In this document: positions 23,469-30,403 of the stretch, piece after piece
How the letters are laid out: every line of letters starts with the position of its first letter
Numbering within the stretch: position 1 is the first letter of the stretch
Assembly (NCBI GenBank): GCA_031290835.1
Contig: JAISLN010000167.1
Coordinates: forward strand, 1-34,139
Origin: Prevotellaceae bacterium
GTDB lineage: Bacteria > Bacteroidota > Bacteroidia > Bacteroidales > UBA932
Direction of reading: 5' to 3'
Length of the DNA stretch: 34,139 nucleotides
The notes under the pieces: generated by a model
The model's database searches: none
The model's input: only the letters and a program-made list of their open reading frames with translations
What the model was told of the DNA's origin: nothing
Program-made: the position numbers and the translations under genes

Positions 23469-26099
23469 TCAGCTTGCGGCGATGGCGCTCGTGGGGAGGT
23501 TGACCGTCACGTTGTCTTTTGCCTCGTTCAGGGTTACGGTTATTTTTCGCTCATCCGTGCTGTTTTCGCTCATGCCGCTGCTGATAATCGCTTCTGATAT
23601 GTTATCTTCGAGGTAGCGCTGAATGGCGCGTTTGAGTGGACGTGCGCCAAATTCCAGGTCGTAACCTTTTTCGGCAATAAAATCTTTGGCTTCCTTGGAA
23701 ATTTCAATGGTGCAGCTCATTTTGCCGAGCCTGCCTACCAAATCCGTCAGCTCTATGTCGATAATTTTGCCAATATCCTCCTTGCTTAGCGTGTTGAAGG
23801 TAATAACCTCGTCCACGCGGTTGATAAACTCCGGCGTGAAGGTGCGCTTGAGCGCTTTTTGGATGATACCCTTAGCTTTTTCGTTAATGTCGGCAATGCT
23901 TTGCTCGGTCGCAAAGCCAATGCCTTTGCCGAAATCTTTTACTTCTCTTGAGCCAATGTTGGAGGTAATGATGATTATGGTGTTTTTAAAATCAACCCTA
24001 CGGCCAAGGCTGTCGGTGAGGTGACCTTCGTCGAGTACTTGCAGCAGCAAGTTGAACACGTCGGGGTGCGCCTTTTCTATTTCGTCCAGCAGCACTACGG
24101 AGTAGGGTTTTCTGCGCACTTTTTCGGTTAGCAAGCCGCCCTCTTCGTAGCCTACGTATCCGGGAGGCGCACCCACCAGCCGGCTCACCGAGAATTTCTC
24201 CATGTACTCGCTCATATCTATGCGGATGAGGTTGTCGGTTGTGTCGAACAGGTATTTTGCCAGCACCTTTGCCAGCAAGGTTTTTCCTACGCCGGTAGGG
24301 CCTAAAAAGATGAACGACCCGATTGGCTTGTTGGGGTCTTTCAGCCCTACGCGGTTTCGCTGAATGGCTTTTACGACTTTCTCCACCGCCTCGTCCTGCC
24401 CAATTACGCTGCCTTTAATGGATTCGCCCATTTTGAGCAGCTTTGCTCCTTCGGCCTGCGCTACGCGCTGCACGGGAACGTTGGTCATCATTGCCACCAC
24501 TTCGGCCACCTTATCTTCGTCCACCACTTCGCGGTTTTCCGTAAGGTTGCTTTGCCATTTGTGCTGCGCAGCCGACAGGAGCTCCTGTATCCGGCGCTCT
24601 TCGTCGCGGTGAGCCGCCGCCAGCTCAAACTTTTGGTTTTCCACAGCGGACTTCTTTTCCCGTACAATTGTCTCCAGCTTTTTTTCCATCTCCGTGATTT
24701 CATCGGGAACGGAAATATTGGAGAGGTGCACGCGCGATCCCGCCTCGTCCAGCGCATCTACCGCCTTGTCCGGCAGGTAGCGCTCCGAGACGTATCGCTG
24801 CGTGAGCAGCACGCAGGCGCGGATAGCTTCGGGCGTATAGATTACGTTGTGGTGGTCTTCGTAGCGCTCCTTTATGTTGTTCAGGATTTCGATGGTTTCA
24901 TCAGCGGTGGTAGGCTCTACCATGATGCGCTGAAAGCGTCGCTCCAGCGCACCGTCTTTTTCGATATATTCCCGGTATTCGTTGAGCGTAGTTGCCCCCA
25001 CGCACTGTATTTCGCCGCGAGCCAGCGCGGGCTTTAGCATGTTGGCGGCGTCGAGCGCACCCGAAGCGCCTCCTGCGCCGATGAGCGTGTGAATTTCGTC
25101 GATGAAGAGAATAATGTGCGAATTTTTTTGCAGCTCGTTCAGGATAGCTTTCATTCGCTCCTCAAACTGTCCGCGATACTTGGTGCCCGCCACCACTGCG
25201 CCCACATCCAGCGTCATTACCCGCTTTCCGAAGAGCACGCGCGAAACCTGCCGGTGGGCTATGCGGAGCGCCAGCCCCTCTACGATGGCGCTTTTTCCCA
25301 CGCCGGGTTCTCCGATAAGGATGGGATTATTTTTTTTGCGGCGGCTGAGAATTTGTGCCAGCCTGTCAATTTCCTTTTCGCGCCCCACCACCGGATCGAG
25401 CAGATTTTGTTCGGCGGCCTTGGTCAAGTCCGTGCCGTAGCTGTCGAGCGCGGGGGTATCAGACGTCGTTTTGCCGCCGATTTTGTACTGATGCTGCGGC
25501 GATGTATGGGCAGGCGCCGTGGGCGTATTGATGTACCTTAAATCGTCGTCGTCATCATCGTCGTCGTCGTCGTCGTCATCGTCATCTTCTTCGTAAGCGT
25601 TGTCGCTTCCGCCGCTGTTGTTGCTTTTTTTGTTGCTGATTAGGTTTTCACCGTAAGGCCTATTGCTTTTGTCCGTGAAAGCGTTTATCACCCTTTGGTA
25701 GTTGACATTTTGCTTTTGCAGCAGCTGCGTTACGATGCTTGAGTCGTCTTTGAGGATAGCCAAGAGCAGGTGAATGGTATCCACCTCGTTTGTTTTTAGC
25801 GAAAGCGCTTCGAGGTGCTGCATTTTCAGCGCACGCTCTACCGACTTGTAAAACAGCAATTTGTCTATATCCCTTACGCTCAGCTCATCGTGGCTTCTGA
25901 CCTTTTCTTCAATCGCCTCTTTCAGCCGCTCCAGATTTACCCCAAGCGAGGAGAGCACATCCAGCGCCGAGTTGTTTCCGTCCCTTATCATTCCCAGCAC
26001 GAGGTGTTCTGTGCCGACGGTCTGATTTCCCAAGCGCAACGCTTCTTCCTTGCTAAAGTTAATCACGTCCGTCAGCTTCTGTGTTGAATTTGTATTCAT
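23469..26099 (-). CDS. clpC: Clp protease ATP-binding subunit ClpC
   Basis: 876 residues. Hsp100 unfoldase that feeds proteins to ClpP. The N-terminal double Clp repeat spans about 1-150 ('[20 protein letters not shown]'). The linker to D1 holds about 15 consecutive Asp. D1 has Walker A '[13 protein letters not shown]' and Walker B '[15 protein letters not shown]'. The middle UVR-like helix ('[18 protein letters not shown]') marks ClpC rather than ClpB. D2 has '[14 protein letters not shown]', '[15 protein letters not shown]' and a C-terminal ClpB_D2-small domain. clpP is not in the window. Divergent from gyrA across 309 bp containing an inverted repeat. No CtsR or McsAB genes are nearby. Confidence 0.96.
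25542..25586. repeat. Trinucleotide repeat coding for poly-Asp in ClpC
   Basis: Fifteen consecutive Asp codons, seen on the plus strand as GTC/ATC triplets, flanked by two Glu codons. Runs of five or six identical triplets make slippage plausible, while the interspersed ATC triplets would slow it. Any change stays in frame. Confidence 0.9.
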
Positions 26100-26408
26100 T
26101 TGTATTTGTGTAAGTTAAAGTAGCCAATTAGGTAAAAAAATAAGTTTGGGTAGCAGCCGCATTCGGTTTTGTGCGGTATTTGACTTACGGGGTTAGCGCC
26201 TCAAAATTCATGCCTGCGCCAAATTGTCAGGTTAACCATAAAAAAATTGGGTAAAGGTATCCATCTTTTGGATATGAAGTACCTTTACGCTGTGCACTTT
26301 TAGATTATTTAATGGGGATTGTTGATAAAAAAGCGGCTCGAAAAACGTGGCGTTCGGGGAAAAAATAGTAATTTAGCGAAATTTTTGTTATTTTACAAGA
26401 CTACATAT
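26100..26408. other. Divergent intergenic region between clpC and gyrA
   Basis: 309 bp with no ORF of interest. The track extends gyrA upstream to 26319, but that extension lacks GyrA-like sequence. No perfect TTTG/TAnnTTTG promoter is seen for either gene. Near matches are TACCTTTA on both strands within the inverted repeat at 26251-26288, and TAATTTAG at 26369-26376 facing gyrA. Confidence 0.55.
26251..26288. repeat. Inverted repeat between clpC and gyrA
   Basis: GTAAAGGTA (26251-26259) and TACCTTTAC (26280-26288) are perfect 9-bp arms. Inside, ATCCA and TGGAT (26259-26263 and 26269-26273) can form an alternative stem. Each strand presents TACCTTTA, one base from the -7 consensus. It could be an operator or paired weak promoters. 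Confidence 0.6.
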
Positions 26409-28946
26409 ATGGCAGATATAGAGGGCGAAAAGATTGTTCCGGTAAATATTGAAGAGATAATGAAGTCATCGTACATTGACTACTCAATGTCGGTGATAGT
26501 TTCGCGCGCGCTACCCGATGTTCGCGACGGGCTGAAGCCGGTGCACCGGCGCGTGCTGTACGGGATGTCGGGGTTGGGCTTGTCGTCGGGATCGGCGCAC
26601 AAGAAGTCGGCAAGAATTGTCGGCGAGGTGATGGGTAAGTACCACCCGCACGGCGATAGCAGCGTTTACTACGCTATGGTGCGCATGGCGCAGTGGTGGA
26701 GCTTGCGCTACATGATGGTTGACGGGCAGGGCAACTTTGGCTCGCGCGACGGCGACGCCGTTGCCGCCATGAGGTACACCGAAGCCCGCCTGCGCAAAAT
26801 AGCGGAGGAAATGCTCCTCGACATTGATAAAAACACGGTGGATTTGTCCCTCAACTTTGACGATACCCTCTCCGAACCCACCGTGCTCCCCTCCAAAATC
26901 CCCATGCTGTTGGTCAACGGAGCGTCGGGCATTGCCGTGGGTATGGCCACCAACATGCCGCCGCACAACTTGGGCGAAGCCGTGGACGCCATCTGCGCCT
27001 ACATCGACAACAACGACATTACCACCGACGAGCTGATGCACCACATCAAAGGTCCCGATTTTCCCACCGGCGGTATCATCTATGGGGTGCAGGGCATCAA
27101 GGAGGCGTATGAAACGGGCAAGGGGCGCGTAGTGATTCGCGCCAAAACCGAAATAGAAATCAGCGATACCGGGCGCGAAACAATTGTGATTACCGAGCTG
27201 CCCTACATGGTAAGCCCGGCGTCGTTGGTGGAAAAAATAGCGCACCTTGCCGAAGAAAAAATTGTTGACGGAATATCTTACGTCAACGACGAATCGGACC
27301 GAACGAACACCACCCGCGTGGTGATAAAGCTCAAGAAGGAGGCGGTGGCCAACATCGTTCTCAACCACCTGTTCAAGCACACCGACATGCAGTCGAGCTT
27401 TTCCGTCAACAGCATTGCGTTGGTGGACGGGCGACCGCTCCTGCTGCCGCTCAAAAAGCAAATAGAGTGCTTTGTAAAGCACCGGCACGAGGTGGTTGTA
27501 CGCCGCGCCAAGTTTGACCTCGAAAAAGCAATGGAGCGCCTCCATATCCTCGAAGGGCTGCTCAAAGCCATTGACCACATCGACGAGGTGATTGCCATTA
27601 TCCGCGCCAGCCAAACGCCCGACGAGGCCATACAAAACCTGACAACCCGCTTTGACTTGGACGAGGTGCAGGCGCGCGCCATTGTGGACATGCGCCTGCG
27701 CGCCCTCACAGGCTTGGAGCGCGGCAAGCTGCAGGCCGAATTTGACGAGCTGACAAAGTTGGCCGCCGAGCTCAACGCTTTCTTGGCGAGCACAGCGCTC
27801 CAAATGAGCCTCATTAAGGAGGAGCTTATTGACGTAAAAAAGCGCTTTGACGACGGCCGCAAAACAGAGATAGTGCTCACCTCGGAAGAGTTTAACCCGG
27901 AAGATTTTTACGCCGACGAAGATGTGGTAATTACCATTTCGCATTTAGGCTACATTAAGCGGACGCCGCTCAACGACTACCACACGCAAAGCCGCGGGGG
28001 CGTTGGCGCTAAGGGCGCTGCCGCGCGCGACGAAGATTTCATCGAGCATATTTTTGCGGCAACCATGCACAACACCATGCTCTTCTTTACCGAAAAAGGA
28101 AAATGCTATTGGCTCAAAGTGTATGAAATACCGGAAGGCACCCGAACGACCAAGGGACGCGCCATACAAAACCTTATCAACCTTGAGCCCGACGACAAGG
28201 TAAAAGCGTACATCAACGTAAAAACGCTTGAGGATAAGGACTACATCGACAACAACCACATAGTGCTGTGCACCAAGCGAGGCGTCATAAAAAAGACGGT
28301 GTTGGAGCAATACTCCCGCCCGCGACAAAACGGCGTGATTGCCATTAACGTTAAGGATGGCGACCAGCTGCTCGAAGCCAAGCTCACCAACGGCTGCAAC
28401 GAAATTATTCTTGCCGCCCGCAACGGCAAAGCGCTGCGCTTCAACGAAAGCAAGGTGCGACCCATTGGGCGTACCGGCGCCGGCGTGCGCGGCATAACGA
28501 TTGACGAAGCCGACGAGGTGATAGGCATGGTGTGCGTATCGGACGAAAAGAGCGAAATACTCGTAGTGTCGGAAAATGGCTACGGGAAGCGTTCGGAGCT
28601 GTCCGCCTACCGCATAACCAACCGCGGAGGAAAAGGTATAAAAACGCTCAGCATTACCGCAAAAACCGGCAACCTCATCGCCATAAAAGACGTAATTGAC
28701 GAAAACGATTTGATGATTATCAACAAATCGGGCATTACCATTCGCGTGCCGGTATCCGAAATTCGGAGGTCGGGGCGCGTGGCGCAGGGCGTGAAGCTCA
28801 TCAAGCTGCGCGAGGGCGACGCCATTGCCGCTGTGGCCAAGGTAAACAAGAGCGAGGAGGAGGAAGAAGCTGCGGCCATCGCTGCAACCGATTTGGTAGC
28901 GCCCGAAACGCCAGCGGCGGAAGGCGCAGATGGAGGCGAAATTTAG
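26409..28946 (+). CDS. gyrA: DNA gyrase subunit A
   Basis: 845 residues from the ATG at 26409 ([18 protein letters not shown]). The track's 30 extra residues are not GyrA-like. The breakage-reunion domain shows '[22 protein letters not shown]', the quinolone-region helix '[18 protein letters not shown]' (residues 78-95) and the catalytic Tyr123 in '[10 protein letters not shown]'. The C-terminal DNA-wrapping domain has six-blade repeats starting after a GyrA-box form, '[10 protein letters not shown]'. That box and the otherwise full wrapping domain support gyrase rather than topoisomerase IV ParC, though Bacteroidetes ParC must be excluded by comparison. The tail is Ala/Glu-rich and low complexity ('[11 protein letters not shown]'). 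It heads a long plus-strand run to gmhB. Confidence 0.95.
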
Positions 28947-29021: not shown

Positions 29022-29600
29022 ATGCAAATTTCCAAAAACAAGGTAGTTTCCCTGTCCTACCAGCTCACCGTTGACGGTGATGTGGTGGACAAGGCAACAT
29101 CCCAAAATCCGCTTTCATTCATATTCGGCAGCGGCATGTTGCTTCCCAAATTTGAGGCAAATATTGAGGGCAAGCGCACCGGCGACGGCTTTAAGTTTAC
29201 GCTTACGCCCGCCGAAGGCTACGGCGAAGTTGATGAAAAAAACATCAACGAATTTCCGTTGGACGCTTTTATGGTAGATGGGCAGCTCGAAGAGGGCTTG
29301 CTGGCGGAGGGCGCTGTTGTACCCATGCAGGATAGCGAGGGAAATGTTTTTAGCGCTACCGTGCTGGAGGTAAAGGAAAATTCGGTGGAGCTTGACTTCA
29401 ACCATCCGTTGGCGGGCATGGAGTTGAGCTTTGAGGGGCAGATTGTTGAAGTGCGCAACGCCACCGAAAAAGAGCTCGCCAAAGGCTTGGGCGGCGGCGG
29501 TTGCTGCTGTTGCGGCGAGGACGGCGACGACGATTGCTGCTGCGACGACGACGATTGCTGCTGCGATGAAGATGATAGCTGCAGCTGCGGACGCCACTGA
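29022..29600 (+). CDS. SlyD-like FKBP peptidyl-prolyl isomerase with Asp/Cys-rich tail
   Basis: 192 residues. The FKBP domain with its chaperone insert covers about 1-150: 'KVVSLSYQLTVDGDVVDKA', 'PLSFIFGSGMLLPKFEANIEG', 'FTLTPAEGYGEVDE', 'FNHPLAGMELSFEG'. SlyD proteins catalyse proline isomerisation, fold clients and bind metals through a His/Cys-rich tail. Here the tail after 'GLGGGG' consists almost only of Cys and acidic residues ('CCCCGEDGDDDCCCDDDD', about 12 Cys in all) and ends 'CSCGRH'. The DNA shows a 21-base internal duplication. Metal binding is likely; which metal is unknown. It lies 75 bp after gyrA and 53 bp before tpiA. Confidence 0.92.
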   Translation: MQISKNKVVSLSYQLTVDGDVVDKATSQNPLSFIFGSGMLLPKFEANIEGKRTGDGFKFTLTPAEGYGEVDEKNINEFPLDAFMVDGQLEEGLLAEGAVVPMQDSEGNVFSATVLEVKENSVELDFNHPLAGMELSFEGQIVEVRNATEKELAKGLGGGGCCCCGEDGDDDCCCDDDDCCCDEDDSCSCGRH

Positions 29601-29653
29601 CAAAGAAATTACAAGTTAGAAGTATCACAAATTAATTGAGCTGTTTTATTATC

Positions 29654-30403
29654 ATGAGAAAAAAAATTGTTGCAGGTAACTGGAAAATGAATACCACCTT
29701 TGCCGAAGGTGAAGCGCTGGTAAAAGCAATCATTGCCAAAAAAGGCGAGCTGAAAAGCGATGTAACGCTGGTGGTAGCGCCGCCGTTCACGCACCTTACC
29801 TGTTTGGCAGAGGATCTGGAGAAGGCGGGCATTGGGCTATCGGCGCAAAATTGCGCCGAGTACGAATCGGGCGCATACACCGGCGAGGTGTCCGCCAAAA
29901 TGTTGGCTTCGGTTGACGTGAAGTACTGCATACTTGGGCACTCCGAGCGCCGCGAATACTACGGCGAAACCAACGCCACGCTGTCGCGCAAAATAGCCCT
30001 GACGCTCAAGCACGCGCTAATACCCATCTTTTGCGTAGGCGAAAAGTTGGACGAGCGCGAAGCTAACCGCCATTTTGACGTAGTGAACGCGCAGCTGGAG
30101 GTGCTTACGCAGCTGAGCGCAGAGGATTTTGCCAAGGTAGTGGTTGCCTACGAGCCGGTGTGGGCTATTGGCACGGGCAAAACGGCAACTTCGGCGCAGG
30201 CGCAGGAAATGCACGCATCTATCCGCAAAACGTTGGCGGCTAAATTTGGCGCAGCGGCAGCGCAAACGCCCATCCTGTACGGCGGCAGCTGCAAACCCTC
30301 CAACGCTGCCGAAATCTTTGCACAACCCGACGTGGACGGCGGACTTATTGGCGGCGCTTCGCTCGTTGCCGATGATTTTATTGCCATCGCAAAAGCGTTT
30401 TGA
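29654..30403 (+). CDS. tpiA: Triosephosphate isomerase
   Basis: 249 residues from the ATG at 29654 ([16 protein letters not shown]). The track's six extra residues come from the spacer and are rejected. Interconverts dihydroxyacetone phosphate and glyceraldehyde 3-phosphate in glycolysis. Active-site parts are complete: Asn-Lys in 'GNWKMN', His in '[14 protein letters not shown]', Glu in '[18 protein letters not shown]' (with mobile loop 6), and the phosphate-binding '[14 protein letters not shown]' and 'GLIGGASL'. Same strand as the FKBP and holA genes. Confidence 0.98.

What the first reader, a model, noticed from the sequence alone, without database searches (positions are those of the whole stretch)
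29480..29600. FKBP tail made almost only of Cys and acidic residues, with a 21-base duplication
SlyD tails usually mix His, Cys, Gly and Asp. Here about 12 Cys alternate in blocks with about as many Asp/Glu and only one His, the second-last... final residue. The DNA block GACGACGATTGCTGCTGC occurs at 29526-29543 and again at 29547-29564. The Cys content would suit soft metals (Cu(I), Zn, Cd) rather than the nickel typical of His-rich tails.
Basis: partly seen in the sequence, partly recalled or inferred. Interest (0 to 1): 0.5.

Follow-up and report, generated by a model that had tools for sequence, protein, structure and literature searches.

The report
SlyD chaperone with cysteine-aspartate tail
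This is an ordinary bacterial folding helper (SlyD) whose floppy end carries unusual blocks of cysteine and acidic residues; the style is shared by its whole genus and probably holds soft metals such as zinc or copper, because these bacteria show no sign of the nickel enzymes that SlyD is famous for serving.

Summary
ORF 29022-29600(+) is a SlyD-type FKBP (PPIase plus insert-in-flap core, confidently modelled). Its disordered tail has 12 Cys, 13 Asp/Glu and one His, the last residue. An exact 21-bp tandem duplication lies at 29525-29566 (0 of 1000 codon shuffles reach it). The tail is not unique. All nine genus members with a visible tail have Cys-plus-acid tails (7-13 Cys), differing in length (28-80 aa) and sequence. 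Cys-rich tails are common in Bacteroidales (73 of 120 order-wide genomes). Special to the genus is the style: CCC blocks (7/9 tails versus 0/94 other Cys-rich tails) between acidic blocks, with CxxC almost absent. The genus shows no NiFe hydrogenase, HypB, urease or LarA in 11 genomes, so nickel delivery to those is unlikely. Across the order, however, Cys content does not track HypB (p=0.84), so 'Cys replaces nickel function' is no general rule. Best reading: a thiolate metal-buffering or metal-sensing SlyD tail whose length and repeats drift by slippage. Metal identity is untested. Side finding: the genus has poly-Asp codon runs (7/11 genomes) that are rare elsewhere (2/50). Low-to-moderate interest.

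The parts
29022..29600 (+). slyD-type gene, 192 aa, FKBP PPIase domain with insert-in-flap chaperone domain plus C-terminal tail
   Evidence: Pfam FKBP_C 2e-9; NCBIfam PRK10737 (SlyD) 6e-24, below its curated cut-off; PDB T. thermophilus SlyD 4e-25, E. coli SlyD 2e-23; AF2 core pLDDT mostly 84-98, Foldseek top hits SlyD E 6e-17
29478..29597 (+). C-terminal tail (residues 153-192): 12 Cys, 13 Asp/Glu, 1 His; predicted disordered
   Evidence: Direct reading; AF2 pLDDT below 50 for most of residues 158-192
29525..29582 (+). 21-bp (7-codon) tandem repeat, two exact copies 29525-29545 and 29546-29566 plus a degenerate third
   Evidence: TRF; 0/1000 codon shuffles as long
26319..28946 (+). gyrA-like gene upstream; same neighbour in genus relatives
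   Evidence: ORF; tblastn of neighbours; name from recalled family resemblance, not profile-searched
29654..30403 (+). tpiA-like gene downstream; same neighbour in genus relatives, not found next to slyD in the fetched loci outside the genus
   Evidence: ORF; tblastn of neighbours; name from recalled family resemblance, not profile-searched

Best explanation
A SlyD orthologue: a cytosolic prolyl isomerase and chaperone with a disordered tail that acts as a multi-thiolate metal ligand. In this genus the usual HGHxH/His tail is replaced by blocks of two to four Cys separated by acidic blocks. The tail most likely binds several thiophilic ions (Zn(II), Cu(I)) in clusters, buffering them and possibly tuning the isomerase/chaperone core when metal is bound, rather than passing nickel to hydrogenase or urease. 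The tail is rebuilt quickly by 21-bp and GAY-codon slippage while Cys content is kept. Shown: SlyD fold, tail composition, genus-wide trait, block architecture, repeat, absence of the main nickel enzymes. Inferred: metal binding, which metal, buffering role, slippage mechanism.
For: SlyD core by sequence and fold. Tail disordered. All nine visible genus tails keep 7-13 Cys despite different lengths and sequences. Cys occur in adjacent blocks (CCC in 7/9 genus tails versus 0/94 others), with CxxC spacing depleted (3 observed, 28 expected) and block spacing enriched at 7-8 residues. No NiFe hydrogenase, HypB, urease or LarA over cut-off in the 11 genus genomes. Published SlyD tails of E. coli and H. 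pylori bind Ni and Zn through His, Cys and carboxylates, and nickel lowers PPIase activity (PMC7055735, PMC10653786). Exact repeats at 21-nt spacing recur in several relatives.
Against: No metal-binding measurement for any Bacteroidales Cys-tail SlyD was found. Order-wide, Cys-rich tails are equally common with and without HypB (24/41 versus 49/79, p=0.84), so tail type is not a readout of nickel use. Tail Cys can also form disulfides: H. pylori SlyD forms tail-dependent multimers under non-reducing conditions (PMC7840056). One genus member has drifted to a mostly poly-Asp tail with 8 Cys (L010). Genus genomes are 50-91% complete.
Confidence: 0.55

Rival explanations
1. The tail still serves nickel (or cobalt) like classical SlyD, storing it with Cys and carboxylate ligands for an enzyme not searched for here.
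For: E. coli and H. pylori SlyD tails contain Cys as well as His and bind Ni(II) (PMC7055735, PMC10653786). Order-wide, Cys-rich tails also occur in HypB-positive genomes (24 of 41).
Against: No NiFe hydrogenase, HypB, urease or LarA in 11 genus genomes; almost no His in genus tails (0-1 per tail).
Confidence: 0.15
2. The tail is largely a by-product of codon-repeat slippage (GAY and TGC runs) in a genus prone to repeat expansion, with little function beyond solubility.
For: 21-bp exact repeats. GAYx8 arrays in 7/11 genus genomes versus 2/50 other relatives, including the ClpC-like linker in this window. One member has a ~53-residue Asp-rich extension.
Against: Cys count stays at 7-13 in all nine genus tails although the sequences differ, and the whole host family has Cys-rich tails (23/23 other members). 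Slippage of GAY does not create Cys blocks.
Confidence: 0.15
3. The Cys blocks act as a redox switch or disulfide-mediated oligomerisation element in an anaerobe exposed to oxygen.
For: H. pylori SlyD forms multimers through its tail under non-reducing conditions (PMC7840056). Block Cys could form disulfides (inference).
Against: The reported multimers are from purified protein and are described as spontaneous; the bacterial cytosol is normally reducing; the acidic partners fit cation binding better. No direct test here.
Confidence: 0.1

Closest known systems
Escherichia coli SlyD
   Same: FKBP plus insert-in-flap core aligned end to end; unstructured metal-ligand tail with Cys, Asp and Glu (PMC7055735)
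   Different: E. coli tail has 13 His and 6 Cys (PMC10653786), here 1 His and 12 Cys; the HGHxH start of the tail is absent here; no HypB/NiFe hydrogenase partner in the genus
Helicobacter pylori SlyD
   Same: Same fold family; tail with 5 His and 5 Cys binding Ni and Zn (PMC7055735, PMC10653786)
   Different: Mixed His/Cys tail and nickel physiology (urease, hydrogenase), both absent here
Thermus thermophilus SlyD (PDB 3cgm, 4odm)
   Same: Closest solved structure, Foldseek E 6e-17, 37% identity
   Different: Short tail with a three-His HGHxH site (PMC7055735); no Cys blocks
Other Bacteroidales Cys-tail SlyD
   Same: Cys-rich disordered-type tails in 73/120 genomes
   Different: Cys mostly separated by Gly/Ser (CGC, CxxC), no CCC; lower acidic fraction
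Metallothioneins and other Cys-block metal buffers
   Same: CC and CxC thiolate clusters in a chain without fixed fold (resemblance from general knowledge, no homology claimed)
   Different: Here it is a tail on a folding enzyme; no sequence relationship tested

Membership tests
SlyD-type FKBP | FKBP PPIase domain | tested here: met
   Pfam FKBP_C 38 bits against cut-off 21.1
SlyD-type FKBP | Insert-in-flap chaperone domain in the FKBP fold | tested here: met
   Full-length alignment to T. thermophilus and E. coli SlyD; Foldseek to full SlyD structures E 6e-17
SlyD-type FKBP | NCBIfam SlyD equivalog score (PRK10737) over curated cut-off | tested here: not met
   84.9 bits against cut-off 174; an equivalog cut-off marks the E. 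coli-type protein, so a divergent phylum can fall below; the assignment 'SlyD-type' rests on full-length similarity and fold, and I do not claim functional equivalence to E. coli SlyD
SlyD-type FKBP | C-terminal metal-ligand tail | tested here: inconclusive
   Met by composition and predicted disorder; metal binding not measured
SlyD-type FKBP | PPIase and chaperone activity | not testable with these tools
   Core positions conserved across 32 homologues; activity needs an assay
Nickel metallochaperone for NiFe hydrogenase (classical SlyD role) | HypB and NiFe hydrogenase present in the organism | tested here: not met
   No hit over cut-off in 11 genus genomes; genomes are 50-91% complete
Nickel metallochaperone for NiFe hydrogenase (classical SlyD role) | His-rich tail / HGHxH site | tested here: not met
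   One His in the tail, no HGHxH
Metallothionein-like metal buffer | Binds several d10 metal ions through thiolate clusters | not testable with these tools
   Cys-block architecture only

The most novel reading that the evidence does not exclude
A genus-specific SlyD in which the nickel tail has become a metallothionein-like Zn/Cu thiolate-cluster module fused to a folding enzyme, with cluster number tuned by gain and loss of 7-residue repeat units.
Probability: 0.2. Interest if true: 0.5.

Novelty: new variant of a known kind. Interest (0 to 1): 0.3.

Why it matters
SlyD is known mainly through nickel delivery in E. coli and Helicobacter. Many Bacteroidales carry a Cys-based tail, often with no HypB in the genome, and I found no paper on it. 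Knowing what such tails bind would show what SlyD does where there is no hydrogenase to serve. The genus tails offer a natural series of repeat-number variants on a nearly constant core.

Tried and rejected
(1) 'Unique oddity of one strain' rejected: all nine visible genus tails are of the same kind. (2) 'Cys tails mark loss of nickel enzymes across the order' tested and rejected: Cys>=4 in 24/41 HypB-positive and 49/79 HypB-negative genomes, p=0.84. This used raw genome counts, not a phylogenetic correction, and only genomes whose best SlyD hit was listed and fetched. (3) Zinc-finger-like CxxC sites in the tail: not supported for the genus, CxxC spacing is depleted. (4) Repeat as chance: rejected. 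(5) Antisense ORF 29115-29603(-) over the gene: taken as a mechanical by-product, not pursued. (7) An alignment with a 10-base locus stub was a mistake of mine and is not used. (8) Papers on Bacteroides SlyD or Cys-rich SlyD tails: none found in the open library. (9) Weak urease-family hits in other family members (G014, G018, G022, G031) cover 41-61 of 121 positions inside ~170-590-aa frames and are probably other amidohydrolases; not pursued.

Full report
What was checked. The gene at 29022-29600(+) encodes 192 aa. Pfam finds FKBP_C, NCBIfam's SlyD model matches over residues 1-190 but below its curated cut-off, and the nearest solved structures are T. thermophilus and E. coli SlyD. An AlphaFold2 model from 32 homologues gives a confident core and a disordered tail (pLDDT below 50 for most of residues 158-192), and Foldseek returns SlyD structures first. 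The gene is therefore a SlyD-type FKBP.

The tail. From residue 153 on it reads AKGLGGGGCCCCGEDGDDDCCCDDDDCCCDEDDSCSCGRH: 12 Cys, 13 Asp/Glu, one His at the very end. With the same codons shuffled, no exact direct repeat this long appeared in 1000 trials.

Origin. The window lies in a 2.69-Mb, 87%-complete genome (G000). The nearest named records are metagenome-assembled 'Prevotellaceae bacterium' genomes; their isolate names look like those of termite-gut samples, which is recollection and not tested.

Relatives. Tails of 70 loci from two searches, and of 120 order-wide genomes, show a continuum. SlyD from other orders and phyla sampled here, and many Bacteroidales, end in HGHVHGPGGHHH-like tails, while 73 of 120 Bacteroidales have at least four Cys. 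HGHxH and Cys-rich tails tend to exclude each other (14/48 versus 59/72 Cys-rich, p=1e-8). On a quick tree of 151 cores the Cys-rich label needs 20 changes against 40.8 when shuffled, and the genus forms one group with moderate support (SH-aLRT 81).

Genus style. The nine genus tails have a median of 10 Cys (7-13) and acidic fraction 0.29, against 5-6 Cys and 0.13-0.15 elsewhere. CCC occurs in 7 of 9 genus tails and in none of 94 other Cys-rich tails. Cys pairs three apart (CxxC) are nearly absent (3 against 28 expected) and pairs 7-8 apart are enriched, so Cys come in blocks about one 21-bp unit apart; in other Cys-rich tails adjacent Cys are avoided instead. Without L001 and L010, the two tails sharing CCCDDDDCCC, the 7-residue signal is weaker (p=0.07; lag 8 p=0.02). 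Tails of relatives share the kind of sequence, not the sequence itself, and vary from 28 to 80 residues. The longest exact repeat has 21-nt spacing in five of nine tails, and is beyond codon shuffles (at most 27 of 1000) in four of these: L001, L003, L007, L010.

Metal context. None of the 11 genus genomes has a NiFe hydrogenase large subunit, HypB, urease alpha subunit or LarA over cut-off; the same holds for hydrogenase and HypB in all 26 other genomes of the family. This argues against the classical nickel-delivery role here. The genomes are 50-91% complete, but joint absence in 11 is hard to explain by gaps. The wider test was negative: Cys-richness does not depend on HypB across the order. 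So the soft-metal reading for this genus rests on the tail chemistry and the missing nickel enzymes, not on a general correlation.

Mechanism. Published work says SlyD tails are variable metal-binding extensions of 2-50 residues rich in His and Cys, that E. coli's binds up to seven Ni and H. pylori's binds Ni and Zn, and that nickel lowers PPIase activity (PMC7055735, PMC10653786). H. pylori tail Cys can also cross-link under non-reducing conditions (PMC7840056). By analogy the tail here most likely binds several thiophilic ions in clusters, buffering them and possibly tuning the core. That is inference; no binding data exist for this protein or, as far as the open library shows, for any Bacteroidales Cys tail.

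Slippage background. GAYx8 codon arrays occur in 7 of 11 genus genomes, 1 of 26 other family genomes and 1 of 24 other order genomes. Several encode poly-Asp in proteins, including the ClpC-like protein of this window and relatives. The Asp part of the SlyD tail may therefore owe much to slippage, whereas Cys content appears kept.

Verdict. Observation confirmed; interpretation partly supported; a lineage-specific variant of a known protein, worth a modest note.

Noticed in passing
window 25542-25586 (-), ClpC-like ORF 23469-26099: Run of about 15 Asp in the linker of a ClpC-like ATPase; genus relatives have runs of 8 to 20 Asp at about the same place (L235, L237, L240).
   Followed up: partly
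G000 contigs C17, C192, C203, C262, C288 (L241, L266, L269, L277-L279): Poly-Asp codon arrays at several further places of the own genome, some in proteins whose C-terminus looks like a type IX secretion sorting domain (recalled resemblance); 7 of 11 genus genomes have such arrays, almost no other relatives do.
   Followed up: partly
L010 (G004) SlyD tail: SlyD tail with CCCDDDDCCC followed by about 53 residues, 51 of them Asp, in mixed GAC/GAT codons.
   Followed up: partly
L023 (G032), L039: SlyD tails of other Bacteroidales built from repeated GHHEGGCC-like units (70-80 aa), another repeat-built tail with both His and Cys.
   Followed up: no
L266 (own genome C192): Open frame ending in a long alternating His-Thr run; may be a simple DNA repeat rather than a protein.
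   Followed up: no
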